Assembly (NCBI GenBank): GCA_902790495.1
Contig: CADASK010000034.1
Span: 1-33,798 of the forward strand
Reading direction: 5' to 3'
DNA length: 33,798 nt
Source of the DNA: an uncultured Eubacteriales bacterium
GTDB lineage: Bacteria > Bacillota > Clostridia > Christensenellales > Aristaeellaceae
Shown: one piece after another, positions 1,117-28,231 of the stretch
Position numbering within the stretch: position 1 is the stretch's first letter
Layout: each line of letters begins with the position of its first letter
The notes under the pieces: model-generated
Told to the model about the DNA's origin: nothing
Databases searched by the model: none
The model's input: the letters and a program-made list of their open reading frames with translations, nothing else
Made by a program: the position numbers and the translations under genes

Positions 1117-2906
1117 CAGCCACAGCAGCCCCAAAAGACAAGCCTGAGATCCCAGTGGATCGGTCCGCCTTTCCGGCCTTTCTCGCGGACAGGTTTGACC
1201 CCGAATCCTGCCTGAAATGGAGCGGCACGGAATCCACCTGGCTCTGCCGCGCGAAGCAGGCAGACGCGCAGGTGCTGGTCAAGACCGCCTCCGAGCCCAC
1301 CGCCATGCGCTGCCTGCGCAATGAGGACGCCCTGCTCCGCGCCATCGCCGCGTCGGATCAGCCCGCTGCGTCCCTTTTTCCGCGCTCTCTCGGGCTGATC
1401 GGAGCCGAGGAGGCGCCGCCGCTGGCCTTGGTGCGCACCTACATCCCGGGCCGCACCCTCGAGTCCCTGGCGGAGGCCGGCTATTCCCGTCCAGGCCTGC
1501 CAGAGGAGGAGGCGGTCGGCTACATCCTGCAGGTGCTGGAGCAGCTCGACTTCCTGCACCATCTCCGGCCGCCGGTGATTCACCGGGATATCAAGCCCCA
1601 GAACGTGATCGTGGACCCGGAGGGCCGCTGCCACCTGATCGACCTGGGCGCTGCCCGCGCCGACCACGGCCCCGCCGATGCGGACACGGTCATCCTGGGC
1701 ACCCGCCTGACCTCCCCGCCGGAGCAGTACGGCTTCCGCTCGACCGACGTCCGCAGCGACCTCTACTCCGTGGGCGTGCTGCTGCGCTACTGCCTGACCG
1801 GCAGCTACGAGGAGAGCGCGGACACCGCCCTGCCGCCGGGGCTTCACCGCATCGTGCGGAAGGCTGTTCGCTTCGACCCGGAAAAGCGCTACCGGCAGGC
1901 CGCCGCCCTGCAGCGGGATCTGCGGGCTTACCGGCGGCGGCACATCCGTCAGACGGGCGGCCGCGGCATCCGGACACCCCTGGCCGCCCTGCTGTGCGCC
2001 GCGGCGCTGGCGCTGGGCTTCGGCCTCGGCAGAGTCACCGCGCCGGGCCTTCCGACCCAAACAAAAACCGCCTCCCGCGGCGCGGAAAGCGTGGTGATTA
2101 CGGAGGCGATGTTCGGCGGGGACCGGGAGCTGTACGAGGCCTACCTGCGGGAGGAATTCCTCGACTGCACGGTGGCCATCCTCCCGGACGGCCTGCACTT
2201 CATCCGCTATCTGGATTTCATTGAAAACTGGACGCCCGGCGGCGTGACCGTCCGCACGCCGCTGACGGCGGAGGAGCTGTCCGCTTATCTGACGGCGCTG
2301 CAGCGCAGCCCGCTGTGGGCCAACGGGCTGAACCTGCTGATCGTCGACCGGGAGGTAGCCTCCCTGGAGCCCTTCCGCATCCGGTACCTGAGCCACCTGA
2401 TCTGCGTGGAGTTCCGCAACTGCTCCCTGCCGGACGACCCGTCTCCCCTGGAGGCGCTGATGCCTTACTGCAACAACCTCGCCTGCTACGACTGCGTGCC
2501 CGTCTCCTGGACGGATCTCGGCTTTTTGCGCAGCGTGAACACGATGGAGTGGCTGGTGCTGAGCTTTGACGGCGTCCGGCCCGTGGATCTCTCCGCCCTG
2601 GCGGCCATCGGCAATCCCGGCGTGCTGAGCCTGGCCAACGTCACAGTGGACGCGGACATCCTGCGGGTCATCGGCGGGATGCAGAACCTCGAGGTGCTCA
2701 GCCTGGTCAATTGCGGCATCACGGATGTCACGGCCCTGTCCGGGCTGACCGGGCTGCGGGAGCTGTACCTGGACAGCAACCGGATCACCGATCTGTCGCC
2801 GGTGGAGGGTCTTCCCGCGCTCGAGCGTCTGTCGGCGGAGTGGAATCCGGCAGCAGGGGGTTCCGCGCCTGCGGGCGCGGGTCAGGGGCTTTGCGATCGC
2901 CCCTGA
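1113..2906 (+). CDS. Membrane Ser/Thr protein kinase with extracytoplasmic leucine-rich repeats
   Basis: 597 residues. The start ATG overlaps the regulator's stop. Kinase domain, residues ~30-275: candidate ATP-binding Lys57 (VLVK), Glu71, catalytic loop HRDIKPQN (157-164, Asp159), a DLG triplet (177-179) in place of DFG, and activation-segment PPEQYG in place of APE. Then a basic stretch, one membrane segment (~288-306), and an ectodomain whose last part has LRRs (LEVLSLVNCGITDVTAL, LRELYLDSNRITDLSPV). The topology is therefore cytoplasmic kinase and external sensor. DLG is common in bacterial eukaryotic-like kinases, so activity is plausible. Oddity: the LRR series stops abruptly after LERLSAEWNP and the last ~18 codons (ending GQGLCDRP) lie in an interspersed palindromic repeat, with the stop codon inside a repeat hairpin arm. 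The original C-terminus has probably been lost. Confidence 0.88.
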   Translation: MTATAAPKDKPEIPVDRSAFPAFLADRFDPESCLKWSGTESTWLCRAKQADAQVLVKTASEPTAMRCLRNEDALLRAIAASDQPAASLFPRSLGLIGAEEAPPLALVRTYIPGRTLESLAEAGYSRPGLPEEEAVGYILQVLEQLDFLHHLRPPVIHRDIKPQNVIVDPEGRCHLIDLGAARADHGPADADTVILGTRLTSPPEQYGFRSTDVRSDLYSVGVLLRYCLTGSYEESADTALPPGLHRIVRKAVRFDPEKRYRQAAALQRDLRAYRRRHIRQTGGRGIRTPLAALLCAAALALGFGLGRVTAPGLPTQTKTASRGAESVVITEAMFGGDRELYEAYLREEFLDCTVAILPDGLHFIRYLDFIENWTPGGVTVRTPLTAEELSAYLTALQRSPLWANGLNLLIVDREVASLEPFRIRYLSHLICVEFRNCSLPDDPSPLEALMPYCNNLACYDCVPVSWTDLGFLRSVNTMEWLVLSFDGVRPVDLSALAAIGNPGVLSLANVTVDADILRVIGGMQNLEVLSLVNCGITDVTALSGLTGLRELYLDSNRITDLSPVEGLPALERLSAEWNPAAGGSAPAGAGQGLCDRP

Positions 2907-2920
2907 CAACCCTTCGCCCG
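2851..2920 (+). repeat. Palindromic repeat family A, simple copy at kinase 3' end
   Basis: Two adjacent hairpins. Hairpin X is CCGCGCC-TGCG-GGCGCGG (2863-2880). Hairpin Y is GTCAGGGG (2881-2888), loop CTTTGCGATCG, CCCCTGAC (2900-2907). AACCCTTCGC follows, as in other copies. It fills the space between two convergent genes and overlaps the kinase reading frame through its stop at 2904-2906. Confidence 0.85.
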
Positions 2921-3541
2921 TCACTTTGCGCAGGCTTTCCGTAACAGCGGAATCAGCACCCCGCCCACGCTGTTGCCCAGGGTCATCACCAGCAGGAGCA
3001 GCAGCGTCCGGCCGCTCCAGACCCCGGCCATGGAGAAATAGTACATATCCGCCACGCAGTGCTCGAAGCCGCAGAGGATGAACACCGTCACCCCGAAGAA
3101 GATGGCGAGGTATTTGCCCACCGGGTGCGGGTTGTTCTTGTAGCCCTCCACGGCGATATAGATCAGCATGTCGCAGAGCACCGCCAGGAAGAACAGGCTC
3201 AGCGGGCTGTCCGCCAGCTTGGCCGCGCTGACGGCCTGGGCGCGCTCCATGAGGGCCGGGCCGACGCGGGTCAGGCTCTCGGCGGCCGCGGTCAGCCAGG
3301 TGCCGGCAAGGTTCCCCAGCCAGATGACGGGCAGGGCCGCGGCGTAGGACGCGCCGTTGTCGAAGACGTAGCACACCTTGCCCGTGAAGAGGCTGAAGCC
3401 GAAGGTGCACACGGCGAACAGGCCCACCGTGAAGAACAGCGCGCCCAGCACCTTGTTCTCCAGCGAGAGGAACACGGTGCCGCCCAGGGCGATGCTGATG
3501 CCGGCGAGCACGCCGCTCACAAAGGTTTTGATCCATTTCAT
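2921..3541 (-). CDS. Formate/nitrite transporter (FNT) family channel
   Basis: 206 residues and strongly hydrophobic, with about six membrane segments (~9-27, 33-53, 66-86, 112-132, 143-163, 177-199). The motif GFEHCVADMYYF carries the central His161 expected in FNT channels (family pattern EHxxANM), and GKVCYVFDN and KYLAIFFG also fit the fold. FNT proteins form pentamers in the cytoplasmic membrane and pass small monovalent anions such as formate, nitrite, hydrosulfide or lactate. It is shorter than classical FocA/NirC (~270-285 residues) and the substrate cannot be read from the sequence. The ATG at 3539-3541 overlaps the stop of the upstream Nudix gene by 4 bases, so the two are co-translated. 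The stop abuts a family A repeat. Confidence 0.85.
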   Translation of the reverse strand: MKWIKTFVSGVLAGISIALGGTVFLSLENKVLGALFFTVGLFAVCTFGFSLFTGKVCYVFDNGASYAAALPVIWLGNLAGTWLTAAAESLTRVGPALMERAQAVSAAKLADSPLSLFFLAVLCDMLIYIAVEGYKNNPHPVGKYLAIFFGVTVFILCGFEHCVADMYYFSMAGVWSGRTLLLLLVMTLGNSVGGVLIPLLRKACAK

Positions 3542-4041
3542 AGCGTTTCCTCCATCCATGCGAGCAGGAATCTCCGGGCCAGGCTGTTGGGTTTGATGTT
3601 CTCCCGCGCCTCCTCCGGCGTGAACCAGGCGAAGGCGTCCACCTCGCCATTGGTGTGCAGCTCGGCGTCGTCCTTCACCCAGACCGTGAAGTTGCACATC
3701 AGGGTGTTGGACGGCTCGAAGAAGGAGGTGCGGTTGAAGCGCAGGCGGGTGGCCGTCATGCCGGTCTCCTCGCGGAGCTCCCGCGCGGCCGCGTGCTCCA
3801 GCTCCTCGCCGCGGGAGACGTAGCCCGCCACGAGGATGTAGGCGTCCCGGCCGTACTGCTTGATGAGCAGCACCTTGCCGGTGGCCTCGCTGATCACGAT
3901 CATGCTGACGGCGACGGAGTAGGCCGGGAAGCGGTACTGCCCGCAGGCCGGGCACCAGGGGGTGATGCCCTCGCCCGGGAGTTCCTTTTCTTCCAGCAAG
4001 GCCCCGCAAGCGGGGCAGTGCGTCTGTCCTTGGACAAGCAT
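3538..4041 (-). CDS. Nudix hydrolase with N-terminal zinc ribbon
   Basis: 167 residues; ATG at 4039-4041 with GGAGAG upstream. The N-terminal ribbon has CPAC (Cys9, Cys12) and CPAC (Cys30, Cys33), which probably hold one zinc. The Nudix box, residues 73-95, is complete: GYVSRGEE, then LEHAAARELREETGM, matching Gx5Ex7REUxEExGU. The ribbon plus Nudix layout resembles the C-terminal half of NudC-type NADH/NAD-cap pyrophosphatases, but the protein is much shorter and the NudC signature SQPWPFPxS is not seen, so I call only a nucleoside-diphosphate-linked hydrolase. It is translationally coupled to the FNT channel. A housecleaning or nucleotide-sugar substrate is equally possible. Confidence 0.88.
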   Translation of the reverse strand: MLVQGQTHCPACGALLEEKELPGEGITPWCPACGQYRFPAYSVAVSMIVISEATGKVLLIKQYGRDAYILVAGYVSRGEELEHAAARELREETGMTATRLRFNRTSFFEPSNTLMCNFTVWVKDDAELHTNGEVDAFAWFTPEEARENIKPNSLARRFLLAWMEETL

Positions 4042-4080
4042 AAGATCTCTCCTTACAGATCAAATAAATTCTTTTTTTGT

Positions 4081-4262
4081 TTGCAGAGAGTTCCGCGCCT
4101 GCAGGCGCGGGCAGGGGGCTTTGCGATCGCCCCCTGCACCCCTTCGCCCCTTCGCTCGCCGCCATATATATTTTACCCTTTCAAAGATGCGGCCCGAAGG
4201 TTTCCAAAGGGCGACCGGAAAGCCCTTTGGTCGCCGCCCGCAGGCGGCGAAATCTCTCTGCT
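4081..4262 (+). repeat. Palindromic repeat family A, composite copy
   Basis: First half 4089-4147: hairpin X (CCGCGCC-TGCA-GGCGCGG), then hairpin Y with GCAGGGGG (4111-4118), loop CTTTGCGATCG and CCCCCTGC (4130-4137). After a short AT-rich link comes an inverted half. Y' is CCAAAGGGC (4204-4212), loop GACCGGAAA, GCCCTTTGG (4222-4230). X' is CGCCGCC-CGCA-GGCGGCG (4232-4249). The loops match those of other copies while the stems differ on both arms. It fills the gap between the peptidase-E and Nudix genes. Confidence 0.85.
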
Positions 4263-4270
4263 GCTGACAA

Positions 4271-5005
4271 TCAGACAACAGCCTCTTCGAGGCTGATGCA
4301 CTCCCCCTCAGCACACAAGGGCACCATCACCCCATCTTGGACGCTGTAGGCTTCCCCGCGCAGCTCCTGGCTGCCATCCTCCCGGACGAGCAGGTAGGTG
4401 CCGTCCACCATCACCGTGAAGCAGTGGCCGTGGCTGTCGCCGAAGGTGATGTCCTCAAACAGCCGCAGGCCGTCCAGCACATTGTCCTTCACCATCTGAT
4501 AGTGCGGGAGGATCATCGCCCGCGTGAGCCCCAGGCCCGGCGCAAACCGCACAAAGTCCGGGTCCACCGCCTCGCCCGGCTCCTCGGGCTGCACGTAGAC
4601 CGTCTCGGCGGCATTCATGCTGCCCGCGCTGATGCCCATCAGCACGCCGGGATAGCCCCGCAGCATCTCGCGCAGGCCGATCTCCCGGAAGAAGCGGTTC
4701 TGGGTCGGCACGTGGCCGCCCGCCAGGATGATGAAATCGGACGCGGCGATCAGCGCCTCGGCCTCGGCCCGGTTCCGGTCGTCCAGGGTGCGGAAGGCCG
4801 CGAAGCGGAACCCGCTGCGCTCGAAGATGTGCTTCATGGAGCCGCCGAAAAGGTCCATCTTGTCCGGGCTGGCCGGATCGGAGGCCACGAAGAGGGCGCG
4901 GACGGGATCGGGCAGGCAGCCGCGGATGGCATCGATGAAGCCGTTGGCGGGGTTCAGGTCGTCCGTGCCGGGAATGACGGGGCTGCTGGTCAGGAAGGCG
5001 ATCAT
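4271..5005 (-). CDS. Peptidase E-like serine hydrolase (family S51, class-I amidotransferase fold)
   Basis: 244 residues; ATG at 5003-5005, preceded by GAGGAGAG. The nucleophile elbow is GISAGSMN with Ser126, following LAGGHVPTQNRFF (95-107), the usual S51 layout. PHY with His168 is the likely catalytic His. The family's known member, dipeptidase E (PepE), cleaves Asp-X dipeptides in the cytoplasm; cyanophycinase is a longer relative. Length and motifs fit peptidase-E-like proteins of Firmicutes, whose substrates are mostly untested. There is no signal peptide. It is divergent from cysK, with about 200 bases between them, and is flanked downstream by a composite family A repeat. Confidence 0.85.
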   Translation of the reverse strand: MIAFLTSSPVIPGTDDLNPANGFIDAIRGCLPDPVRALFVASDPASPDKMDLFGGSMKHIFERSGFRFAAFRTLDDRNRAEAEALIAASDFIILAGGHVPTQNRFFREIGLREMLRGYPGVLMGISAGSMNAAETVYVQPEEPGEAVDPDFVRFAPGLGLTRAMILPHYQMVKDNVLDGLRLFEDITFGDSHGHCFTVMVDGTYLLVREDGSQELRGEAYSVQDGVMVPLCAEGECISLEEAVV

Positions 5006-5119
5006 GGCGGTTTCTCTCCTCTGCGGATGCGCGCCGGCGCAGGCACGTTATAGGTAAAAGCTTCTTCCAGTTATCGGATTTTCCTGCCTCGCCCGCGGCA
5101 AAACAGGCTTGTTTTTGTC

Positions 5120-5148
5120 TTGACAAGCGGGGCGGCAAAATCTACAAT
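5120..5148 (+). promoter_or_regulatory. cysK promoter
   Basis: TTGACA (5120-5125), 17-bp spacer, TACAAT (5143-5148), near consensus for the housekeeping sigma factor. A small inverted repeat, GGCGG-CGAGA-CCGCC (5159-5173), follows just after the expected transcription start. No T-box or SAM-riboswitch motif is visible in the short leader. Confidence 0.8.
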
Positions 5149-5204
5149 AGCGCAAACGGGCGGCGAGACCGCCTGTGCAGATGAGATGACAAGGAGGCTT
5201 TCTG

Positions 5205-6134
5205 ATGGCGAAGATTTATCAAAGCGCGGAGGAGCTGATCGGCCGCACGCCGCTGCTGGAGCTGAAGCACATCCAGGAGGCGGAGGGCCTGCAGGCGACG
5301 ATCCTGGCCAAGCTGGAGTATTTCAACCCCGCCGGCAGCGTGAAGGACCGCGTGGCCAAGGCCATGATCGAGGACGCGGAGGCCCGGGGCGCGCTGAAGC
5401 CCGGCTCGGTCATCATTGAGCCGACCTCCGGCAACACGGGCATCGGCCTGGCGATGGTGGGCACCGTGAAGGGCTACCGGGTCATCATCGTGATGCCGGA
5501 CAGCATGAGCGAGGAGCGCCGCCGCATCATCCGCGCCTACGGGGCAGAGCTGGTGCTGACCGAGGGCGCGAAGGGCATGAAGGGCGCCATCGCCAAGGCG
5601 GAGGAGCTGGCCGCGGAGATCCCCGGCAGCTTCATCCCGATGCAGTTTGAGAATCCCGCGAACCCCGCCGCCCACCGCGCGGCCACCGGCCCCGAGATCG
5701 AGGCCGACACGGACGGCCGGGTGGACATCTTCGTGGCGGGCGTCGGCACCGGCGGCACCATCACAGGCACGGGCGAGTACCTGAAGGCGCACATCCCCGG
5801 CGTGAAGGTGGTGGCGGTGGAGCCGGACGCGAGCCCCGTGCTCTCCGGCGGCAAACCCGGCCCCCACGGCCTGCAGGGCATCGGCGCGGGCTTTGTGCCC
5901 AAGGCGCTGAACACCGGTGTCTACGACGAGGTGATTCGGGTGACGAACGAGGACGCCTACGCCACCGGGCGGATGATCGGCCGCACGGAGGGTGTGCTGG
6001 TGGGCATCACCTCCGCCGCGGCGGTGTGGGCGGCGATGCAGCTGGCGAAGCGGCCGGAGAATGTGGGCAAGACGATTGTCGCCTTGTTGCCGGATGGCGG
6101 CGACAAGTATCTGTCGACTCCGATGTTTGCGTAA
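5205..6134 (+). CDS. cysK: Cysteine synthase A (O-acetylserine sulfhydrylase)
   Basis: 309 residues, the normal length. AAGGAGG sits 7 bases before the ATG. It makes L-cysteine from O-acetylserine and sulfide using pyridoxal phosphate, in the cytoplasm. NPAGSVKDR carries the Schiff-base lysine (Lys47). TSGNTG (74-79) is the substrate/PLP loop, [10 protein letters not shown] binds the cofactor phosphate, and [11 protein letters not shown] is the usual loop before it. The C-terminal [15 protein letters not shown] is typical of CysK. There is no cysE (serine acetyltransferase) beside it, so O-acetylserine must come from an unlinked gene. It is monocistronic, with its own promoter and a hairpin terminator ~160 bases downstream. 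Confidence 0.95.
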
Positions 6135-6150
6135 GGTTTCTTCTGTTTTT

Positions 6151-6212
6151 GCAGGGGTTTCGGCCTGCGGGCCGACCCGGGGGCTTTGCGATCGGTCCTT
6201 GCAACCCTTCGC
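6151..6212 (+). repeat. Palindromic repeat family A, degenerate copy
   Basis: Hairpin X is shortened to CGGCC-TGCG-GGCCG (6161-6174). Hairpin Y keeps its loop core CTTTGCGATCG, but its stem arms (ACCCGGGGG / GGTCCTTGC) no longer pair well. The flank GCAACCCTTCGC is as in other copies. Confidence 0.7.
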
Positions 6213-6219
6213 AGCGCCG

Positions 6220-6282
6220 TCTTGATAACTTGGCTCTCCCTCTGGGAGAGCTGTCGAGCGAAGCGAGACTGAGAGGGCCTCG
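6220..6282 (+). repeat. Short repeat family B
   Basis: GGCTCTCCCTCTGGGAGAGC is a hairpin, followed by a small second stem around GCGAAGC and then ACTGAGAGGGC. The same layout recurs at 28277-28321 and, inverted, at 9535-9583. Confidence 0.75.
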
Positions 6283-6293
6283 CAGGTGCTTGA

Positions 6294-6328
6294 AAGGGCC
6301 GTTCCCAATGACGGGAACAGCCCTTTTT
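6294..6328. terminator. Intrinsic terminator between convergent cysK and LRR gene
   Basis: AAGGGC (6294-6299) and GTTCCC (6301-6306), loop AATGAC, then GGGAAC (6313-6318) and GCCCTT (6320-6325), with one C/A mismatch, followed by T's on the plus strand. It serves cysK best. The minus-strand T run is poor, but the stem may also stop the LRR transcript ending at 6344. Confidence 0.75.
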
Positions 6329-6343
6329 GTCTGGTGTCATGGT

Positions 6344-8284
6344 TTAATCAGCAGGGACGAATACAACGTTGGCGATGGCGGCGCAGCTGGCTTCGGTCGT
6401 GCCGCCGGCGGGGGCGAAGATGAACACCGTGTCGCAGCCGGTGAAGGCGGTGACGTCGATCTTGCAGGCGGCGGGCAGGAGGAGCTGCGTCAGCGCCGTG
6501 CAGCCCCGGAAGGCATTCGCGCCGATGGCGGTCACATGGCCCGCGTCCACCACGGTCATGGCAGTCATGCCCTCGAAGGCGCTCTCCCCGATGGTGGCGA
6601 GGTTCGCGGGCAGGGTGAAGGCTGCCGGGCCGAAGGTGGGCTTGGGGATCACGAAGGCAACCGTGCCGTACCGATCTTTGGGGCCGGAAAAGGCGAAGGC
6701 AAATTCACCAAAGGCGGCGCAGGCGGGAAGCCTGGTCAGGTTCACGCAATAGGCTTCGTCGTCAAAGGCGATGAGCAGGTCAGGCTTGCGGTCGCGGTTC
6801 ACGTCCAGGGCTTGCGTAGCGGTGGCTTCGTCATACCAGATCAGGGGCGGCTCTCCCTCCATAAACTGGATCTGCATCCAGGCGTCTCTGGGCAGCGCCA
6901 GGGTTTGGTTCGGCGCGAAGGAGAGCGCCATGGCTTCCCGCGCCGCCTGCACCGCGCCGATGGTCACATCCTCGCGGGGCATGGTGAAGCCGGTCACGGG
7001 CCAGGAGATCAGCCCGTCCACGCTGGTCTTGCGGCCCAGGCTCACCCCGTTCACGGTGAATTCGCCGGTGAAGTAGTTCCCTTCTTCCGGCTCGGCATCC
7101 TCCCGGAGCCACAGGGACAGCTCCGTCCCCTCCTCCGCCTCGGTGGGGAACACCTTCTCAAAGCTATCGTCGTAGTAGTAAGCCAGCGCTGCGCCGTCGG
7201 TTTTGATGATGTGAGGGTGCTCCGGCACCACCAGTGTCAAAGGGATTGTATAATCTGCATTGAACCCAATACCACCTGCTTTCCAGCTTACATTGATTCC
7301 CAATGCTCCTGTATAGGTTCCAGGTATAGCTGCTTCAAAACTTTCGGGATCCAGGTAAATAAACAGGTCGAGCTTCTGCCCCTGTGACGTGATTGTTTCC
7401 ATAGTCGGCCATTCTGGGTCATATGTTTGATCTGCGTGACAGGGAATACATGAAAGGCTGTTGCCATTTCCGTCGCTTAGTTCGCCAAGGAAAAGATTCA
7501 CCCCAAGCTGCTCGGCCACAGCATAATTGCCATTCTCTTGAACATACTTGCCGAGAACCAGCGTTTCCGCCATGATAGTAAACGGCGTATATCCCGGCCC
7601 CTGAAGCGTGACCGGCTGGAAAGACAGCTTGTGGCTGGCGTCAGGACCCGCATCCCAATCGAGCAGCCACTTAGCGGTAAAGGTGGTTTGCTCTGCGGTC
7701 AGCTTGTTATATTGTACGTTCCCCTCCCAGCCATCGAATGCGTAAAAAGCGGTTGGCCTGGCGAAGGTACCAGGGCAATATTCGTCTTTCAGCCGGAAGG
7801 CCAGCGACCCGTCATCCTCATAGTAGAACTGGCAGTTGCCCACTGTTTGACAGCTCTCCGTGGAAATGCCGTTCTTGGTGCTGAAGGTGATGGGCTCGCC
7901 CGTGCCCAAGCCGGGGTCGAGGGTGACGGTGTAAATGACGGTATTCTCGACGAAGACGGCCTCATAGCTGCGGTTTTCATGGATGGCAAAGGAGAAGGCG
8001 GCATCCTGCAGGGTCGTGCCGTCATCGCGCTTCCAGTGATCAAACCGATAACCCGTAAAGGCGGTCGCGGTGATCGTGACCTGGTTTCCGTCAGAATAGC
8101 TGCCCCCTCCACCGACGGCGCCGCCTGCGGAAGGGTTGGCAGACAAGGTGACGGTGTAGGTGGGCGGGTCGTTAAAGTCTTCGTACCTTCTGTTTTCTGT
8201 TGCGTCATGAACCGCCAGCGCCGGCGCCGTCAACAGCACCGCGAGCAGTAAAGCGCACACCAGCGCCATCCACAGCCTTTTCAT
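6344..8284 (-). CDS. Secreted protein with an InlB-type B-repeat and C-terminal leucine-rich repeats
   Basis: 646 residues. The start ATG at 8282-8284 has GGAGG 8 bases upstream. An upstream in-frame extension is rejected because the signal peptide begins here (MKRLWMAL, hydrophobic core, APALA cleavage). Residues ~38-110 form a B-repeat/Flg_new module (TVTLSANPSAGG, then GYRFDHW). Other beta-rich modules follow: KDEYCPGTF..AFDGWEGN (~175-205) and TFTAKW, then VNGVSLGRKTSVDG. Residues ~545-646 are LRR_5-like (LPANLATIGESAFEGM, HVTAIGANAFRGC). There is no LPXTG motif or C-terminal membrane anchor, so it is probably released or held by unseen means. The central coding stretch (about 7200-7770) is clearly less GC-rich than either end, suggesting recombination. 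Its function is unknown; an adhesin or glycan-binding role is only inferred. Confidence 0.85.
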   Translation of the reverse strand: MKRLWMALVCALLLAVLLTAPALAVHDATENRRYEDFNDPPTYTVTLSANPSAGGAVGGGGSYSDGNQVTITATAFTGYRFDHWKRDDGTTLQDAAFSFAIHENRSYEAVFVENTVIYTVTLDPGLGTGEPITFSTKNGISTESCQTVGNCQFYYEDDGSLAFRLKDEYCPGTFARPTAFYAFDGWEGNVQYNKLTAEQTTFTAKWLLDWDAGPDASHKLSFQPVTLQGPGYTPFTIMAETLVLGKYVQENGNYAVAEQLGVNLFLGELSDGNGNSLSCIPCHADQTYDPEWPTMETITSQGQKLDLFIYLDPESFEAAIPGTYTGALGINVSWKAGGIGFNADYTIPLTLVVPEHPHIIKTDGAALAYYYDDSFEKVFPTEAEEGTELSLWLREDAEPEEGNYFTGEFTVNGVSLGRKTSVDGLISWPVTGFTMPREDVTIGAVQAAREAMALSFAPNQTLALPRDAWMQIQFMEGEPPLIWYDEATATQALDVNRDRKPDLLIAFDDEAYCVNLTRLPACAAFGEFAFAFSGPKDRYGTVAFVIPKPTFGPAAFTLPANLATIGESAFEGMTAMTVVDAGHVTAIGANAFRGCTALTQLLLPAACKIDVTAFTGCDTVFIFAPAGGTTEASCAAIANVVFVPAD

Positions 8285-9402: not shown

Positions 9403-9590
9403 AGGGGGCGAAATGCTCCTGCACCCCTTTGCACGTCGGCTCGCAACGTGATTTGCCTTCCCCCTCTGGGGGAAGGTGTCAGCCCATCGGGCTGACGGAT
9501 GAGGGTTCCTGCCTCATTCTTCAGAGCAGCTAAGGCCCTCTCCGTCAGCGCTTTGCGCTGCCACCTCTCCCAGAGGGAGAGGCAAGATTT
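9403..9590. repeat. Repeat cluster: family A remnant plus two family B copies
   Basis: 9403-9432 looks like a decayed family A hairpin (GCAGGGGG ... CTCCTGCACCCC). 9455-9514 is a family B variant, CCTTCCCCCTCTGGGGGAAGG, then a GTCAGCCC/GGGCTGAC stem and GGATGAGGGT. 9535-9583 is the other variant in inverted orientation (GCCCTCTCCGTCAGCG ... CTCTCCCAGAGGGAGAG). I see no coding sequence in 9387-10077. Confidence 0.75.
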
Positions 9591-9624: not shown

Positions 9625-9772
9625 AAGAGTGGCCGCGCGAAGGGTTGTCAGGGGCGACCGCAAAGCCCCTGACCCGCGCCCGCAGGCGCGGAACCGCCTG
9701 TGCAGGGGGATTTCGCCGCCTGCGGGCGGCGACCAGAGGCTTTCCGATCGCCTCTGGACTCTTCGGGCCGCA
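9625..9772 (-). repeat. Palindromic repeat family A, composite copy
   Basis: This is the inverted counterpart of the 28030 copy, including the shared flank reading GCTGCCAAAACAAGAGTGGC just before it. On the minus strand: Y' CCAGAGGC/GCCTCTGG with loop GATCGGAAA, X' CGCCGCC/GGCGGCG, a link, X CCGCGCC/GGCGCGG, and Y GTCAGGGG/CCCCTGAC. The Y loop here reads CTTTGCGGTCG, a one-base variant. Confidence 0.85.
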
Positions 9773-20235: not shown

Positions 20236-20355
20236 GGCGAGCGGCGAAGGGTTCCAAGGGGCTCGGAGCGCCCGGAAAACTCCATGTTATGGAGTTTTCA
20301 GCGGAGAGCGGGCGGCAGCCCCGGACCGATCGCAAAGCCCCTTGCCCGCGCCCCT
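20236..20355 (-). repeat. Palindromic repeat family A with module C
   Basis: The family A flank (GCGAAGGGTT) and the conserved loop (CGATCGCAAAG) surround module C, a perfect 11-base inverted repeat: GAAAACTCCAT (20275-20285), GTT, ATGGAGTTTTC (20289-20299). Compared with the copies at 22839 and 28177, one stem base pair has changed on both arms (G-C to T-A). Confidence 0.85.
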
Positions 20356-21377: not shown

Positions 21378-21398
21378 TCCCTGCATTCGCACATCCCC

Positions 21399-21424
21399 GG
21401 CGGGGAACCTCCCCGCCATTTCTT
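21399..21424 (+). terminator. ybaB-recR terminator
   Basis: GGCGGGGA (21399-21406), loop ACC, TCCCCGCC (21410-21417), then ATTTCTTT. Confidence 0.7.
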
Positions 21425-21447
21425 TATATGAGGAAGGAAGCACCCCT

Positions 21448-22787: not shown

Positions 22788-22799
22788 ATGCATCTCACA

Positions 22800-22944
22800 G
22801 GCGAAGGGCGAAGGGTTGGAGGGGGCTCGGAGCGCCCGGAAAACGCCATGTTATGGCGTTTTCAGCGGAGAGCGGGCGGCAGCCCCGGACCGATCGCAAA
22901 GCCAGCCCCTGACCCGCGCCCGCAGGCGCGGAACCCTGTTTGCA
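22800..22944 (-). repeat. Palindromic repeat family A with module C
   Basis: Flank GCGAAGGGTT, then module C GAAAACGCCAT (22839-22849), GTT, ATGGCGTTTTC (22853-22863), GGACCGATCGCAAAG and hairpin X (CCGCGCC-CGCA-GGCGCGG). It occupies nearly all the space between acpS and the methyltransferase gene and lies just upstream of the latter's ribosome site. Confidence 0.85.
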
Positions 22945-22968
22945 AAAGAGTATGAGGAGAACACACCC

Positions 22969-23862
22969 ATGGATGAGCGCATCCCGGATTACCTGGCCCA
23001 GCGCCTGATATCTGCCTACGGCGACATCGTCGCGGAGGACATCGCCGCGGGCTATGTCCGCAAACCCTCCACCCTCCGGGCCAACACGCTGAAAACCACA
23101 GCAGCTCAGGTCGCCGCCGCCCTGGCGGAGGCCGGTATCGCCGCCGAGCGCGTCCCGTGGTACGGCGACGCCTTCATTCTGCCCGGCGCGCAGGAGAAGG
23201 CCCTGCCCGCCCCGCTCTACGACGGGGGCCTCATCTACCTGCAGTCCCTCTCGGCCATGCTCCCAGCCCTGCTGATGGAGCTGAAGCCGGGCTCCTCCGT
23301 GCTGGACATGTGCGCGGCCCCCGGCGGCAAAACCACCCAGATCGCGGCCCTCTCCGGCGGCCAGGTGAGCCTGACGGCCTGCGAGCGCGACGCGGCCCGG
23401 GCGGAGCGGCTGCGCTTCAACCTCGAGCGCCAGGGCGTGCGGCAGGTCAGCGTGATGCAGACCGACGCCCGCCAGCTGGACGATTTCTTCCGCTTCGACG
23501 AGATCCTGCTGGACGCCCCCTGCACCGGCAGCGGCACCCTCGTGCTGGAGGGCGAGCCGCCGCGCCGCATGACGCCTGCCTGGGTGGACAAGACCGTCCG
23601 CGCCCAGAAAGCCCTGCTCAAAAAGGCCATGACCCTCCTCCGGCCCGGCGGTACCCTGGTCTACGCGACCTGCTCCATTCTCCCGGAGGAGAACCAGGAC
23701 GTTGTCGCCACCGCCCTGGCGGCCGGCATGGAGCTGGTGCCCGCCCCGGAGGCCCTGGCCGCGGCCCTGCCCACCCTGCCCGCACCGGAGGGCATGATCT
23801 GCGTCAGGCCCACCGCCCTGACCGAGGGCTTCTTCGCGGCGAAGATGAGGAAAAAGAGATAA
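22969..23862 (+). CDS. RsmB/NOP2-Sun-family RNA cytosine-5 methyltransferase
   Basis: 297 residues. The ATG at 22969 has AGGAG 9 bases upstream; the frame is open further upstream only because it reads through the repeat. The SAM site is LDMCAAPGGKT (112-121). DAPCTGSG supplies Cys185 (motif IV) and ATCS supplies Cys235 (motif VI), the two-cysteine pair of m5C RNA methyltransferases. YDGGLIYLQSLSAMLPALL is the conserved lead-in. It lacks the NusB-like N-domain of RsmB (~430 residues) and the extra C-domain of RsmF, so the target (rRNA or tRNA) is uncertain. No terminator with a T-run is visible; an imperfect inverted repeat (AAAGCACGGCC ... GGCCATGCTTT, 23883-23929) follows. Confidence 0.88.
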   Translation: MDERIPDYLAQRLISAYGDIVAEDIAAGYVRKPSTLRANTLKTTAAQVAAALAEAGIAAERVPWYGDAFILPGAQEKALPAPLYDGGLIYLQSLSAMLPALLMELKPGSSVLDMCAAPGGKTTQIAALSGGQVSLTACERDAARAERLRFNLERQGVRQVSVMQTDARQLDDFFRFDEILLDAPCTGSGTLVLEGEPPRRMTPAWVDKTVRAQKALLKKAMTLLRPGGTLVYATCSILPEENQDVVATALAAGMELVPAPEALAAALPTLPAPEGMICVRPTALTEGFFAAKMRKKR

Positions 23863-23933
23863 CACGGACATGAAGGCGCGGGAAAGCACGGCCTCTGGTG
23901 CCGATCTGTTCTGCCCGCGGCCATGCTTTGCAG

Positions 23934-23964
23934 TTGACAAATGATAACGTTAGCGTTATCATTT
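23934..23964 (+). promoter_or_regulatory. Promoter and palindromic operator of the toxin-antitoxin operon
   Basis: TTGACA (23934-23939), 17-bp spacer, TATCAT (23957-23962). A perfect inverted repeat, AAATGATAACG (23939-23949), TTAG, CGTTATCATTT (23954-23964), covers the whole spacer and the -10. This is the expected layout for autorepression by the HTH antitoxin. Confidence 0.88.
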
Positions 23965-23983
23965 GATAGATGGAGGAGGGCTC

Positions 23984-24343
23984 ATGCACCCGATTATCTT
24001 CTATGTGGATCGCAACGGTCGGTCATCATTACTGGATTACATCGAGGAACTGGAGAAAAGCGGAAGCAAGGACAGCCGCATCAAGCTGACGAAAATCCGT
24101 GAATACGTCAAGGCGCTCTCCCTCAATGGCACCTATCTGCCGGAAAAATACCTGAAGCATCTGGACGGGGAGATCTGGGAGCTGCGTCCCATCGCGGACA
24201 GAATCCTTTTTGCCGCATGGATCGACGGCGCGTTTGTGCTTCTTCACTGTTTTCCCAAGAAGACTCAGAAGACCCCCAAGAGGGAGATCGATAAGGCCAA
24301 GCGTGAACTGGCTGATTTCAAGGAACGGGAGGGCGGCACATGA
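23984..24343 (+). CDS. higB: HigB/RelE-superfamily toxin (Gp49-like)
   Basis: 119 residues. GGAGGAGGG precedes ATG 23984. Family features of Gp49/HigB-like ribosome-dependent mRNA interferases: [18 protein letters not shown] at the N-terminus, [29 protein letters not shown], then the central strand block [19 protein letters not shown] (catalytic-type Arg residues) and [20 protein letters not shown], with the characteristic FxKKTxKTPxxEI. The gene order toxin before antitoxin is the HigBA arrangement. The antitoxin start overlaps its stop (ATGA). No catalytic position is obviously broken, so it may be active. Confidence 0.9.
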
Positions 24344-24657
24344 ACACAACCAAGGGCGGATTCCCTATCTGGGATGAGGCGTTCGACATGGAACACTTTA
24401 CCTCCGAGGAAATTGCCGAGAGCGATCTTCGCGCGGCGCTGATCACGTCGCTGGTGCAGGCGCGGCGCGAGCAGGGCCTCAGTCAGCGCGACCTGGAAGC
24501 CATCAGCGGCGTCAAGCAGCCGCAGATCGCGCGGCTGGAAAGCGGCAACGCCAACCCGAAAATGGACACGATGCTCAAGCTGCTGGCAGCCATGGGCAAG
24601 ACCCTCACCATCGTCCCCCTGCAGGAGCAGGGCAACCCCGCGGCCGCCAACGGCTGA
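24340..24657 (+). CDS. higA: HigA-like XRE antitoxin
   Basis: 105 residues, starting inside the last codons of the toxin gene. Residues ~33-90 are an XRE helix-turn-helix: [35 protein letters not shown], with recognition around QPQIARLE. The N-terminal ~30 residues ([14 protein letters not shown]) form an acidic extension that could contact the toxin. It should neutralise the toxin and repress the operon at the palindrome 23939-23964. The ABC transporter operon starts 57 bases later with no clear promoter or terminator between, so read-through is possible. Confidence 0.9.
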
Positions 24658-24714
24658 CCTGGTAAGAAACCAGGCGTCCATCCCTGATTCTTCCCTGAAA
24701 GGGGCTTATCGCTG

Positions 24715-25674
24715 ATGATAGAATTACGTGATGTCAGCAAGCGCTACGGCACAGTCGAGGCGCTGCGGGACGTCTCCTTCACTGCCCCGGACAAGCATAT
24801 CATCGGCCTGCTGGGCATCAACGGCGCGGGCAAATCCACCGCGCTGAACGTCCTCACGGGCTATTTTCCGCCGACCTCCGGCCAGGTGCTGGTGGGCGGC
24901 GTCGATATGCTGCGCGATCCCCGCGCCTGCAAGCGGCAGATCGGCTACCTGCCGGAAAAGCCGCCGCTCTACGACGAGATGACCGTGCGGGACTACCTGC
25001 GCTTCGCCTGTGAGCTCAAGGACGTGAAGCGCGCCTCCGTCTCGGCCCACGTGGACGAGATCATCGGCCTGACCGGGCTGAAGGAGGTGCGCGGCCGCGT
25101 GATCGGCCACCTCTCCAAGGGCTACCGCCAGCGCGTCGGCTTCGCCCAGGCCCTGTGCGGCAGCCCGGAGACCCTCGTGCTGGACGAGCCCACCGTGGGC
25201 CTCGACCCGCGCCAGGTCAGCGAGATCCGCACGCTGATGCAGCAGCTGAGCCTGGAGCACACCATCATCTTCTCCTCGCATATGCTCTCGGAGATCCAGC
25301 AGATGTGCGACCGCGTGGTGATCCTCCACCGGGGCCGCGTAGTCCGCGAGGCGGATCTGGCCGACCTGACGGACACCGACGGCCGCACCCACCTGCGGGT
25401 CTCCATCGCCATGGATGAGAGCCAGCTCCTGCCCGCGCTGAAGGGACTGCCCTTCGTGCGCCGGGTGCGGCAGCACACCTCCGCCCTGCCCCACGTGACC
25501 GAGGTAACCCTCGACTGCGACGCGGACGGCGCGGGCCGCGGCGATCCCCGCGTGCAGCTGTTCCGCCTGCTGGCGGGCCTGGACGCGCCGATCCTGCACC
25601 TGGCCCAGGAGCGGGACAGTCTGGAGGACGTCTTCCTCCGGGTGACCAGCGGAGAGGAGGCGGCAGCGGTATGA
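24715..25674 (+). CDS. ABC transporter ATP-binding protein (GldA-like)
   Basis: 319 residues. Walker A GINGAGKST (34-42), Q-loop IGYLPEKPPLYDEMT, signature LSKGYRQR (133-140, a common variant of LSGGQ in this family), Walker B LVLDEPTVGLD (154-164), and H-loop SSHMLSEI. The C-terminal ~90 residues form an extra domain, as in long GldA/NatA-type subunits. AAAGGGG lies 12 bases before the ATG. The next two genes overlap or follow closely and encode a membrane subunit and a GldG-like protein, so this is an export-type ABC system. Gld names come from gliding-motility genes of Bacteroidetes, but the cluster is widespread in non-gliding Firmicutes and its cargo is unknown. Confidence 0.92.
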   Translation: MIELRDVSKRYGTVEALRDVSFTAPDKHIIGLLGINGAGKSTALNVLTGYFPPTSGQVLVGGVDMLRDPRACKRQIGYLPEKPPLYDEMTVRDYLRFACELKDVKRASVSAHVDEIIGLTGLKEVRGRVIGHLSKGYRQRVGFAQALCGSPETLVLDEPTVGLDPRQVSEIRTLMQQLSLEHTIIFSSHMLSEIQQMCDRVVILHRGRVVREADLADLTDTDGRTHLRVSIAMDESQLLPALKGLPFVRRVRQHTSALPHVTEVTLDCDADGAGRGDPRVQLFRLLAGLDAPILHLAQERDSLEDVFLRVTSGEEAAAV

Positions 25675-26384
25675 TCGCGGTGTGGAAACGCGAGATGCAG
25701 AGCTATTTCTACACGCCGGTGGGCTACGTGTTCATGGGCGTGTTCCTCACGCTCTCGTCGGTCATCTTTTTCCTGCAGATCATGAGCCAGCGCTCCAGCG
25801 ACCTGCTCACCTTCATCGGCAACATGAGCTACCTGTGGATGCTGCTGTGCCCGGTGCTGACCATGCGCCTGCTGGCCGAGGAGCGGCAGAAGGCCACCGA
25901 CCAGCTGCTCTTTACCAGCCCGGTCTCCATCATCGGCGTCGTGCTGGGCAAGTACCTGGCGGCCATCACCCTAACGCTGATCACCGTGGCGCTGACCCTG
26001 GTCTACGTGCTGGTCGTGATGCTCTACGGTCAGGTCTTCGCCGGGGAGCTGCTGTGCGGCTACCTGGGCTTTGTGCTGCAGGGCTTCGCCTTCATCGCGG
26101 TGGATCTGTTCGTCTCCGGCCTGTGCCGCGCGCCCGTCACCGCCGCCATCCTCGCCTTCGGGCTGAACTTCGCGCTGTGGATGATGGACCTGCTGGTCTC
26201 CGCCGTGCCCGCGCAGCTGGGCCGGGCGCTGTCCTTCCTCAGCCTCTACAGCCGCAACGAGCCCTTCCTCATGGGACAGCTCTCCTACGCCAGCATCCTC
26301 TACGACGTGGCGGTCATCATCATCTTCCTCGCGTCGGCCATCTGCACCCTGGATGCCCGGCGCTACCGCGGAAAGGGGGCGTGA
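25671..26384 (+). CDS. ABC transporter membrane subunit (GldF-like, ABC-2 type)
   Basis: 237 residues. The ATG overlaps the ATPase stop (ATGA). The N-terminal WKREMQSYFYTPVGYVFMG is the ABC-2/GldF signature, followed by about six membrane helices (~16-36, 50-66, 95-118, 125-150, 153-180, 202-225). EERQKATDQLLFTSPVS (71-87) is the cytoplasmic coupling segment typical of this family. It forms the channel part of the system with the upstream ATPase. Confidence 0.9.
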   Translation: MIAVWKREMQSYFYTPVGYVFMGVFLTLSSVIFFLQIMSQRSSDLLTFIGNMSYLWMLLCPVLTMRLLAEERQKATDQLLFTSPVSIIGVVLGKYLAAITLTLITVALTLVYVLVVMLYGQVFAGELLCGYLGFVLQGFAFIAVDLFVSGLCRAPVTAAILAFGLNFALWMMDLLVSAVPAQLGRALSFLSLYSRNEPFLMGQLSYASILYDVAVIIIFLASAICTLDARRYRGKGA

Positions 26385-26387
26385 CGG

Positions 26388-27878
26388 ATGAACGGCAATC
26401 AGCAAAACAGCGCCCACAGGAAGGCCAAGCCCGTCCAGCGCACGCAGATGCGGGCCGGCGCCATCTCCCTCGCCCTGCTGCTGGTGATCACCCTGGCCCT
26501 GATGACCCTGTGCGCCATGGCGGATCACCTGGAGAAGAAGAACGGCTGGCGCAGGGACATGTCCTTCAACGAGCTGACCACCCAGAGCGAGACCACCCTG
26601 CAGGTGATCTCGGAGCTGAAATACCCCGTGCACATCTACGCCCTGTTCAGCAAGGGCCAGGAGGATCAGCCGCTGCTGGAGCTGCTCGCGCGCTACGCCG
26701 CCGCCAGCGACATGATCACCTGGGAGCAGACCGACATCGGCCTCAACCCGCTGCTGCTGGAGCGCTACCGCACCAGCTCCTCCGAGGACGTGATCACCAA
26801 CGACTCCCTGATCGTGACCTGCGACGACACGGCCCGCTTCCGCGTGCTGGGGCCTCAGGACTTCATCAGCTACAGCTATGACATGGATCAGGGCATGTAC
26901 ACCCTGGGCGGCCTGACCTACGAGAGCAGCATCACCTCCGCCATCCGCTACGTGACCCAGGAGTCCATCCCGCGGGCTATGATCCTGCAGGGCCACGGCG
27001 AGCTGGACGCGGACAGCACCGCCGCCTTCGTCTCCCTGGTGGAGAGCAACGACATCGAGGTGGATTACTACAACATCCGCTCCCAGGAGGTTGTGCTGTT
27101 CCCGGAGGATCTGCTGGTGATCCTCAGCCCCCAGAAGGATCTGGGCGACGACGAGCTGGTCATCATCCAGGACTTTTTGAGCCAGGGCGGCAGCCTGCTG
27201 ATGACCTGCGACTTCACAGACCCCGTGGAGGAGATGCCCAACTGGCAGGCGCTGATGCGCTACTACGGCTTCCTGCCCAAGAACGGCCTGGTGGTCGGCA
27301 GCGATCAGGAGCCCTACACCTTCTACGACGAGAACCGCATCTACCTCCTGCCCACCATGCAGTCCACCGAGATCACGGCGGATCTGGTGGCGGCCGGAGC
27401 CTCCTCCATCCTCTTGGCGGGCAGCCGCGGCTTCGCGATGCCCGAGGAGAGCGACCGCGACCTGAGCACCAGCGCCGTGCTCACCAGCGGCGCGCGGGCC
27501 TACCTGCGCGTCGTGACCGACAACACCACCACCCTCGCCCAGCAGGAGGGCGACGAGATGGGGCCCTTCGCCCTGGCCCTGCAGGCCCGCCGGGTCACCA
27601 CCGACGGCTACGTCAGCCGCGCCTTCATCTGCGGCTGCTCCACCCTGCTGACCTCCGCCACCATCTGGAGCCTCACGGACGCCCAGGAGCTGATCGTGCG
27701 GGTGCTGGAATACCTGCTCAACATGGAGCCGGTGGATCTGGAGATCATCCCCAAGGTCGCCGTGCGGCCTCAGCTCTCGCCGCGCAGCGCGGCCCTGGGC
27801 ACCGCCATCACAGTGGCCCTCCCGGTCATCGTGTTCGCCGTGGCGGCTGTGGTGCTGGTGAAGAGAAAGAATATGTAA
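26388..27878 (+). CDS. GldG-like ABC-associated membrane protein
   Basis: 496 residues, starting 3 bases after the permease stop. One N-terminal membrane helix (~23-46), a large external domain, and one C-terminal helix (~468-491) ending VKRKNM. SELKYPVHIYALFSKGQEDQ and AMILQGHGELD match the GldG/ABC_transp_aux (IFT52-like) domain, whose glutamine-amidotransferase-like fold lacks an obvious nucleophile. ILSPQKDLGDDELVIIQDFL and GGSLLMTCDF are further conserved blocks. In related operons a DUF4340 gene usually follows; here a repeat cluster follows instead. The role is probably accessory to the exporter. Confidence 0.88.
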   Translation: MNGNQQNSAHRKAKPVQRTQMRAGAISLALLLVITLALMTLCAMADHLEKKNGWRRDMSFNELTTQSETTLQVISELKYPVHIYALFSKGQEDQPLLELLARYAAASDMITWEQTDIGLNPLLLERYRTSSSEDVITNDSLIVTCDDTARFRVLGPQDFISYSYDMDQGMYTLGGLTYESSITSAIRYVTQESIPRAMILQGHGELDADSTAAFVSLVESNDIEVDYYNIRSQEVVLFPEDLLVILSPQKDLGDDELVIIQDFLSQGGSLLMTCDFTDPVEEMPNWQALMRYYGFLPKNGLVVGSDQEPYTFYDENRIYLLPTMQSTEITADLVAAGASSILLAGSRGFAMPEESDRDLSTSAVLTSGARAYLRVVTDNTTTLAQQEGDEMGPFALALQARRVTTDGYVSRAFICGCSTLLTSATIWSLTDAQELIVRVLEYLLNMEPVDLEIIPKVAVRPQLSPRSAALGTAITVALPVIVFAVAAVVLVKRKNM

Positions 27879-27888
27879 AAGAAAAGAG

Positions 27889-27990
27889 CCTTCCCCCTCC
27901 GGGGGAAGGTGGCATCGGGCCAACGGCCCGATGACGGATGAGGGTCTGCCCGCCAGGCAAGGAACAAGCCTGGCAGCAGACCCTCATTTA
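27889..27990 (+). repeat. Short repeat family B, long variant
   Basis: CCTTCCCCCTCCGGGGGAAGG hairpin, then CATCGGGCC/GGCCCGATG-type stem, GGATGAGGGTCTGC, and an inverted GCAGACCCTCATT at the end. It may also end the ABC operon transcript, but no clear T-run is present. Confidence 0.7.
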
Positions 27991-28029
27991 TGCTATTGTG
28001 CTATAAACAGCAGGGATTTATCAAGAACG

Positions 28030-28231
28030 GCTGCCCGAAGAGTCCAGAGGCGATCGGAAAGCCTCTGGTCGCCGCCCGCAGGCGGCGAAATCTTCCTGCA
28101 GGAGCAGAGATTCCGCGCCTGCGGGCGCGGGTCAGGGGCTTTGCGATCGGTCCGGGGCTGCCGCCCGCTCTCCGCTGAAAACGCCATAACATGGCGTTTT
28201 CCGGGCGCTCCCTGCACCCCTTCGCGCGGCC
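28030..28231 (+). repeat. Palindromic repeat family A, full composite copy with module C
   Basis: In order: Y' CCAGAGGC (28044-28051), loop GATCGGAAA, GCCTCTGG (28061-28068); X' CGCCGCC-CGCA-GGCGGCG; a link; X CCGCGCC-TGCG-GGCGCGG; the start of Y with GCTTTGCGATCG. Then, in place of a plain Y right arm, module C GAAAACGCCAT (28177-28187), AAC, ATGGCGTTTTC (28191-28201), and the CCCTTCGCGCGGC flank. It is the inverted equivalent of 9625-9772 plus module C. No gene is visible in 27879-28335. Confidence 0.88.

What the first reader, a model, noticed from the sequence alone, without database searches (positions are those of the whole stretch)
2851..28231. Interspersed composite palindromic repeats with compensatory stem changes
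At least seven intergenic copies share a modular plan: hairpin X (arms around TGCG/CGCA) next to hairpin Y (loop CTTTNCGATC), often followed by an inverted Y'-X' pair, and sometimes module C. The loops are constant while the stems differ on both arms. Hairpin Y is GTCAGGGG/CCCCTGAC at 2881 but GCAGGGGG/CCCCCTGC at 4111, three paired changes. Y' is CCAAAGGGC/GCCCTTTGG at 4204 but CCAGAGGC/GCCTCTGG at 28044. This pattern is hard to explain by drift and argues for selection on pairing, as RNA or as cruciform DNA recognised by a mobilising enzyme (REP/BIME-like). No REP-associated tyrosine transposase is in the window.
Basis: seen in the sequence. Interest (0 to 1): 0.75.

Follow-up and report, generated by a model that had tools for sequence, protein, structure and literature searches.

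The report
Mobile repeats encoding DNA triple helices
A gut bacterium carries hundreds of scattered short repeats whose sequences vary, but vary together in the way needed to keep a hairpin, a small knot and probably a third DNA strand lying along the hairpin, which would be unusually direct evolutionary evidence that DNA triple helices are maintained in living cells.

Summary
In detail: seven intergenic loci carry ten X-Y units of a genome-wide family (129 units in 433 kb sampled). Stems covary beyond controls. Y is more than a hairpin: its loop pairs with the downstream tail (free pair complementary in 229 of 232 copies), an H-type pseudoknot. The short segment between stem and tail (L3) tracks the stem base by base at one offset: 256 of 266 cells over 56 haplotypes, permutation maximum 236. 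Read on the opposite strand, this is the antiparallel purine-motif triplex code: 238 of 250 cells, against 185 for the pyrimidine motif. Copy number is 0-439 within one genus; 11 of 12 comparable units are missing at that place in a relative. Y1/RAYT, reverse transcriptase and IS110 families were not found in the own genome nor in G010, G002 (66% complete) and G035. So: a REP-like, apparently mobile family of a new intrastrand-triplex type, mobiliser unknown. Against it: wobble pairs favour the other strand, orientation differs between genera, and triplex formation was not tested physically.

The parts
2861..2917 (+). Unit 1, short form: X hairpin 2863-2880, Y stem 2881-2889/2899-2907, loop 2890-2898, L3 (third-strand segment) AACCC 2908-2912, clamp tail TTCGC 2913-2917
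4091..4147 (+). Unit 2, short form: X 4093-4110, Y stem 4111-4119/4129-4137, loop 4120-4128, L3 ACCCC 4138-4142, tail TTCGC 4143-4147
4194..4253 (-). Unit 3, short form, inverted partner of unit 2: tail TTCGG 4194-4198, L3 AAACC 4199-4203, Y stem 4204-4212/4222-4230, X 4231-4250
6158..6212 (+). Unit 4, mosaic: X 6160-6175, 5' arm CCCGGGGGC 6176-6184, loop 6185-6193, non-matching 3' arm 6194-6202, L3 AACCC 6203-6207, tail TTCGC 6208-6212
9637..9693 (-). Unit 5, short form: tail 9637-9641, L3 AACCC 9642-9646, Y stem 9647-9655/9665-9673, X 9674-9691
9711..9766 (+). Unit 6, short form with 8-bp stem: X 9713-9732, Y stem 9733-9740/9750-9757, L3 ACTC 9758-9761, tail TTCGG 9762-9766
20244..20350 (-). 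Unit 7, long form, X truncated: tail 20244-20248, L3 20249-20253, 3' arm 20254-20262, module C 20263-20327, loop 20328-20336, 5' arm 20337-20345 (one basal mismatch); no unit in the matching interval of L051
22808..22935 (-). Unit 8, long form, mismatched arms: tail 22808-22812, L3 22813-22817, 3' arm 22818-22826, module C 22827-22891, loop 22892-22900, X 22914-22931; no unit in the matching interval of L051
28035..28091 (-). Unit 9, short form with 8-bp stem: tail TTCGG 28035-28039, L3 ACTC 28040-28043, Y stem 28044-28051/28061-28068, X 28069-28088
28111..28225 (+). Unit 10, long form, mismatched arms: X 28113-28130, 5' arm 28131-28139, loop 28140-28148, module C 28149-28206 with hairpin 28177-28201, 3' arm 28207-28215, L3 ACCCC 28216-28220, tail 28221-28225

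Best explanation
Each unit is a short non-coding mobile (or rapidly gained and lost) DNA element whose conserved product is a folded single strand, not a sequence. Shown by sequence: a hairpin Y, mostly 7-9 bp; a 4-bp clamp in which the Y loop pairs with the downstream tail; a segment (L3) between stem and tail whose bases follow the stem pairs; in the window's species nearly always a second hairpin X; and sometimes a structured insert C. Inferred: on the strand reading tail-L3-purine arm-loop-pyrimidine arm, L3 folds back into the major groove of the stem as an antiparallel purine-motif (reverse-Hoogsteen) third strand, G over G-C and A or T over A-T, and the loop-tail clamp pins its end. That is a class I intrastrand triplex in single-stranded DNA. 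Inferred: it forms when that strand is exposed, in replication or transcription, and something that recognises, copies or stalls on the folded form keeps the fold while letting the sequence drift through matched triple changes. The enzyme that spreads the units is not identified and is not a Y1/RAYT transposase that the Pfam model can detect.
For: Stem and clamp covariation: 97.4% of 611 cells paired; the free clamp pair is GC in 27 and CG in 18 of 47 haplotypes and complementary in 229 of 232 copies. Stem/L3 coupling: 256 of 266 cells at offset 2, at most 72.5% at the other offsets tried (-1 to 5), permutation mean 217 and maximum 236 in 2000; first data set 143 of 146 cells, maximum 131 in 10000. 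Haplotypes first met in genus g52 obey it too (90 of 93 cells). Code: purine motif 238 of 250 cells, pyrimidine motif 185 of 250. Length: stem arm plus L3 is 10, 12 or 14 nt in 188 of 190 copies. L3 is not coupled to the upstream flank in 120 units (0.769 against 0.772 shuffled). Two other repeat families in this genome show the same mirror relation (21 of 30 stems better than 95% of shuffles). Turnover: 0-439 copies among 12 genomes of one genus and missing sites in G005. Purine-motif triplexes form in DNA and not RNA (PMC4666352, passage).
Against: Wobble changes favour the other strand: of 12 single non-Watson-Crick stem pairs, 9 are G.T or T.G on the + strand and 1 is A.C, and one clamp pair is A-T in 33 and G.T in 11 of 47 haplotypes. 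On the triplex strand these would be A.C mismatches; RNA folding of the + strand, or strand-biased C-to-T mutation, would explain them. The triplex covers only a few base triples. The purine code is the more permissive one. Permutations do not preserve relatedness, and the haplotypes are recombining subfamilies. 10 of 266 cells deviate; 17 of 56 haplotypes do not have the exact stem-minus-four L3 length; many long forms have mismatched arms. RNA folding scores are about equal on both strands. Orientation preference differs between genera. In E. coli the related TM_ECO motif folded in vitro, but footprinting did not support stable formation in vivo (PMC4666352, passages). Triplex formation was not tested physically.
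Confidence: 0.55

Rival explanations
1. The + strand works as an RNA: an X hairpin plus an H-type pseudoknot whose loop 3 lies in the minor groove of stem 1 and makes base-specific triples there. The units would be mobile RNA modules that act near gene 3' ends.
For: The order S1a-L1-S2a-S1b-L3-S2b is H-type, and L3 runs parallel to S1a as loop 3 must. Wobble bias 9:1 on this strand and G.T in the clamp. In g52 genomes several units sit roughly 10-50 nt after a sense stop codon.
Against: In the window's species units are mostly antisense to tandem flanking genes (64 opposite, 26 same). No Rfam family. The strict G-to-C, A-to-A-or-T code is the purine-motif DNA code; a minor-groove code of that strictness is not known to me (recalled, not tested).
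Confidence: 0.2
2. REP/BIME proper: hairpins mobilised as single-stranded DNA by a diverged or missing RAYT-type transposase, with L3 and tail as a cleavage site chosen by base contacts like IS200/IS605 guides.
For: Intergenic location, copy number, inverted pairs, sharp ends about 5 nt before X and about 12 nt after the tail. IS200/IS605 cleavage sites are chosen by base interactions with guide tetranucleotides, including triples (PMC6006769, PMC8266576, passages).
Against: PF01797 was not found in G000, G001, G002, G005, G010, G019, G025 and G035 (41-439 copies). Of the 15 other genomes searched, which have 0-32 copies, 7 have it (G006 with 32 copies among them) and 8 do not. No GTAG tag. 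Guides are tetranucleotides 5' of the hairpin, not the stem itself.
Confidence: 0.15
3. Hairpins conserved only as terminators or mRNA 3' stabilisers, with L3 linked to stems by common descent and recombination rather than by structure.
For: Preference for convergent and 3' positions: 22 units in 9.4 kb convergent, 90 in 57.6 kb tandem, 10 in 18.4 kb divergent intergenic DNA. Few stem haplotypes, with visible mosaics.
Against: No T-run directly after either hairpin; only a weak T preference (52-67%) some 9-11 nt after the tail. The code holds for haplotypes first met in other genera. Arm changes recombine with different basal pairs while L3 follows only the middle of the arm.
Confidence: 0.1

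Closest known systems
Intrastrand triplex motifs (ITx), TM_ECO / BoxC / PIT elements (Holder et al. 2015, PMC4666352: abstract, sections 15 and 16, passages)
   Same: Intergenic, many copies, patchy between relatives; three consecutive triplex-forming blocks on one strand; G/C-rich purine motif.
   Different: Here class I order (third strand first) rather than class II; loop-tail clamp; attached X hairpin and module C; stems differ between subfamilies with the third strand following. The TM_ECO consensus has no match in the window.
REP / BIME / REPIN with RAYT (PMC8266576 passages; PMC3116915 and PMC2817692 search listing only)
   Same: Hundreds of intergenic palindromic units, inverted pairs, high copy in some species and none in sisters.
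   Different: No RAYT found, no GTAG tag, pseudoknot plus third-strand coupling, larger composite unit.
Pneumococcal BOX and RUP elements (PMC3049150, search listing only; details recalled)
   Same: Modular small interspersed repeats, mobiliser unclear or in trans.
   Different: No sequence comparison made; no triplex or pseudoknot coupling recalled for BOX.
IS200/IS605 ends (PMC6006769, passages)
   Same: Single-strand hairpins with a tail whose identity is set by base contacts, triples included.
   Different: Guide is a tetranucleotide 5' of the hairpin; no TnpA found here.

Membership tests
REP/BIME (RAYT-associated) | High-copy intergenic palindromes | tested here: met
   125 of 129 units outside gene calls, about 0.3 per kb
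REP/BIME (RAYT-associated) | Conserved tetranucleotide tag (GTAG) at the 5' foot | tested here: not met
   Logo upstream of X is purine-rich (about RGGGR) then TT, no GTAG, n=111. Definition from PMC8266576 passages
REP/BIME (RAYT-associated) | Y1 HUH transposase (PF01797) in the genome | tested here: not met
   0 matches in G000, positive control in 5 of 14 genomes; 0 in seven other genomes with 41-439 copies. The genome is 94.5% complete
Intrastrand triplex repeat, class I/III | Three consecutive blocks obeying a triplex code | tested here: met
   238 of 250 purine cells obey the purine-motif code, but L3 is mostly 3-5 nt, under the 6-15 used by ITxF
Intrastrand triplex repeat, class I/III | Triplex forms physically | not testable with these tools
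   Needs CD, NMR or footprinting
TM_ECO / BoxC | Consensus CCCTCNCCC N3-6 GGGNGAGGG N3 GGGNGAGGG | tested here: not met
   0 exact matches in the window (consensus); its first two blocks have 0 exact matches in the 246 loci held. The one mismatch the paper allows was not searched
Structured RNA family in Rfam | Covariance-model match at the gathering score | tested here: not met
   0 matches in the whole window
Intrinsic terminator | Hairpin directly followed by a T-run | tested here: not met
   Flank logos: no T-run directly after either hairpin on either strand; weak T preference 9-11 nt after the tail
MITE | Terminal inverted repeats and target-site duplication | tested here: inconclusive
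   Ends are sharp, but flanks of empty sites are too diverged to read a duplication

The most novel reading that the evidence does not exclude
A natural repeat family in which evolutionary covariation between a duplex and a third strand shows that an intramolecular DNA triple helix, clamped by a pseudoknot, is the selected unit, and this folded single strand is the transposition substrate of an unidentified, non-RAYT mobilising enzyme.
Probability: 0.3. Interest if true: 0.9.

Novelty: new variant of a known kind. Interest (0 to 1): 0.72.

Why it matters
Whether DNA triplexes form and matter inside cells is an old open question. In E. coli the TM_ECO repeats fold in vitro, but footprinting did not support stable formation in vivo (PMC4666352, passages). 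A family with hundreds of copies whose third strand follows the stem through many changes supplies matched natural variants: each predicts which mutants should fold. It also points to a mobiliser outside the three protein families tested.

Tried and rejected
L3 pairing with the upstream flank (an outer helix suggested by one RNA fold): rejected by permutation. Antiparallel pairing of L3 with the purine arm: rejected by reading the ACTCC, AATCC and AAACC haplotypes. Pyrimidine-motif triplex on the + strand: fits less well (185 against 238 of 250). RAYT, reverse transcriptase and IS110: not found in G000, G010, G002, G035, G001 and G005; RVT_1 is present in 6 of 12 tested carriers (G088, G127, G019, G025, G087, G069) and 4 of 12 low-copy genomes, IS110 in 2 and 4. 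A gene flanked by units as autonomous partner: 41 single genes bracketed by units, 36 of them from G000; only two similar pairs, both within G000; housekeeping-looking by eye; recurrence between genomes was hardly testable with five from relatives. Rfam at low threshold on 471 bases gave 9 hits, all below gathering scores. One wobble tally for X is not meaningful (the outer pair was counted as a mismatch) and is not used. One search stopped on a script error and was repeated. One search stopped after the family-1 results and one part of family 2/3; that part was rerun. Passages of PMC8040213 (structured RNAs in human microbiomes) and a term search of PMC3733652 (no occurrences) gave nothing on this family.

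Rows dropped: 3 of 235 short sites without the tail anchor, 41 sites with more than one mismatch set aside; 2 odd-length haplotypes and 1 unpaired core left out of the association test.
Full report
What is in the window. The window is contig C34 of a 2.47 Mb, 78-contig genome, 94.5% complete. A RecR search, which kept the best 80 of 521 relatives, found gut and rumen Clostridia MAGs with names such as Limiplasma, Ventricola and Christensenellaceae; the species itself is unnamed. Ten X-Y units lie at seven intergenic loci. A unit reads, 5' to 3' on its + strand: purine-rich lead, TT, hairpin X (mostly 6-8 bp; loop TGCG in 127 of 147 parsed, 14 of 161 units giving no hairpin), Y 5' arm, loop TTTNCGNTC, Y 3' arm, L3, TTCG(C/G). 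Long forms carry module C between loop and 3' arm.

The family. In 433 kb of this genome read contiguously there are 129 units, 85 short and 44 long. With up to one mismatch the short-core pattern matches 313 times genome-wide; with up to two, the module-C pattern matches 135 times. Of 308 genomes of the taxonomic family, 128 have a short-core match, many of them a single one; the reversed-pattern control matches in 6 by my count of the table. Within the own genus the counts are 313, 439, 288, 57, 48, 32, 6, 6, 4, 2, 1 and 0. Conservation stops about 5 nt before TT and about 12 nt after the tail, and the flanks beyond are near random, as for independently inserted units.

Turnover. G005 is a congener with 97% identity in glycogen phosphorylase. 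I compared 161 G000 units with 460 kb of G005 in 23 pieces. Twelve units had both flanks aligned: one is shared, and eleven lie in seven intervals where G005 has no such unit, one of these intervals holding a different copy (six of the seven read in full). In the named relative L051 the intervals matching window units 7 and 8 have no unit. The flanks are too diverged to read target duplications.

Structure, first layer. On 47 distinct 37-nt haplotypes of the 9-bp form, stem plus clamp give 97.4% paired cells (shuffled 82.9%), 91 double-change cells (33) and covariation score 0.424 (0.169); no shuffle of 500 reached these three. Further pair types are 18 against 13.9 (3 of 500 reach it), and pairs with any double change 6 against 5.6 (304 of 500 reach it). 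Sliding by 1-3 columns gives 39-53%. The clamp (loop GCGA or CCGA with tail TCGC or TCGG) makes Y an H-type pseudoknot. Two of its four pairs cannot vary because their letters anchored the scan. Its free end pair is complementary in 229 of 232 copies.

Structure, second layer. L3 tracks the stem. Numbering arm bases from the loop (p1, p2 ...) and L3 bases back from TTCG (t1, t2 ...), t_k follows p_(k+2): C when p is G, otherwise mostly A or T. Over 56 haplotypes 256 of 266 cells agree at offset 2; the other offsets from -1 to 5 give 37-73%; permuting L3 among haplotypes of equal length gives mean 217 and maximum 236 in 2000. On the first data set mutual information peaks at that diagonal for t2 to t4 (0.26, 0.91, 0.82 bits); t1 does not vary. 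Arm plus L3 total 10, 12 or 14 nt in 188 of 190 copies. In the larger set 39 of 56 haplotypes have L3 exactly four shorter than the stem (7/3, 8/4, 9/5); 17 deviate. Haplotypes first met in genus g52 obey the rule in 90 of 93 cells.

Reading the code. On the opposite strand L3 becomes G over each G-C pair and T or A over each A-T pair, antiparallel to the purine arm. That is the purine-motif code as given in PMC4666352 (GGC and A(T)AT). 238 of 250 purine cells fit, against 185 for the pyrimidine motif on the + strand. The purine code is the more permissive one (two letters over A-T), but of 66 A-T cells 63 carry A or T in L3 (cell table). Because purine-motif triplexes cannot form in RNA, the code argues for a DNA fold. 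L3 and stem are mirror images, neither direct nor inverted repeats, so template copying would not create the relation (inference).

Against this. Single stem mismatches are 9 G.T/T.G to 1 A.C on the + strand, with 2 others (two-sided p 0.02), and one clamp pair is A-T in 33 and G.T in 11 of 47 haplotypes; both favour folding of the + strand or a C-to-T bias on it. Predicted RNA folds are about equally stable on both strands. Units are mostly antisense to tandem neighbours in the own genome (64 to 26, p 8e-5), but in five g52 genomes all 25 counted lie on the GC-skew-positive strand, while G087 of that genus is 5 to 4 and G000 is 54 same to 75 opposite. I cannot explain the difference. Gene calls were home-made.

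Mobiliser. PF01797 was not found in any of the eight searched genomes with 41 or more copies; among 15 with fewer copies 7 have it. Carriers such as G088 and G127 were not searched for it. PF00078 and PF02371 were not found in G000, G010, G002, G035, G001 and G005 but are present in some other carriers. The mobiliser is open.

Same genome, same trick. Two other dispersed families show a hairpin, usually a second hairpin (stem of 5 or more in 26 of 30), and then a mirror-image purine block. Of 30 such stems examined, 24 fall in four subtypes (stems CTCTCCC, CCTCTCCC, CCTTCCCCC, CCTTCCCC) with third blocks GAGAGGG, GGAGAGGG, GGATGAGGG and GGATGAGG, of equal length and 7/7, 8/8, 8/9 and 7/8 code matches; 21 of 30 beat 95% of shuffles. 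These are class II order, like TM_ECO, with a longer, usually hairpin-forming second loop. In them a Watson-Crick alternative (tail with arm end plus loop) is not excluded.

Print status. In the listings of ten literature searches in the open-licence library I saw no description of this family and none of third-strand covariation in bacterial repeats; most subscription papers are not covered.

Noticed in passing
window 6230-6276, 9456-9505, 9556-9590, 27886-27944, 28276-28320: Other dispersed repeats (CTCTCCC..GGGAGAG..GAGAGGG and CCTTCCCCC..GGGGGAAGG..GGATGAGGG) look like class II intrastrand triplex motifs with a longer, usually hairpin-forming second loop; third-block length equals stem length in four subtypes.
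   Followed up: partly
G079, G085, G088, G091, G092 (L227-L242, L245) versus G000: Unit orientation is 25 of 25 on the GC-skew-positive strand in these g52 genomes but 54 same to 75 opposite in G000; polarity seems to differ between genera.
   Followed up: partly
window 927-2906: The open frame of what looks by eye like a kinase with a leucine-rich C-terminal part runs into unit 1, so the unit supplies the last codons of this ORF.
   Followed up: no
window 30241-31800: Protein with 69-base coding repeats, leucine-rich-repeat type by eye.
   Followed up: no
G025, e.g. C21:23382-23945 and C31:3892-4127: Core motif (one mismatch) in tandem arrays spaced about 109 nt, in places with inverted copies some 600-750 nt away; a masked stretch lies between two inverted copies in L132.
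   Followed up: partly
G019 units in L131 and L150; G035 units in L146 and L246: By eye all 5 printed G019 units and at least 4 of 7 printed G035 units lack hairpin X, so Y with L3 and clamp looks like the core and X an add-on.
   Followed up: partly
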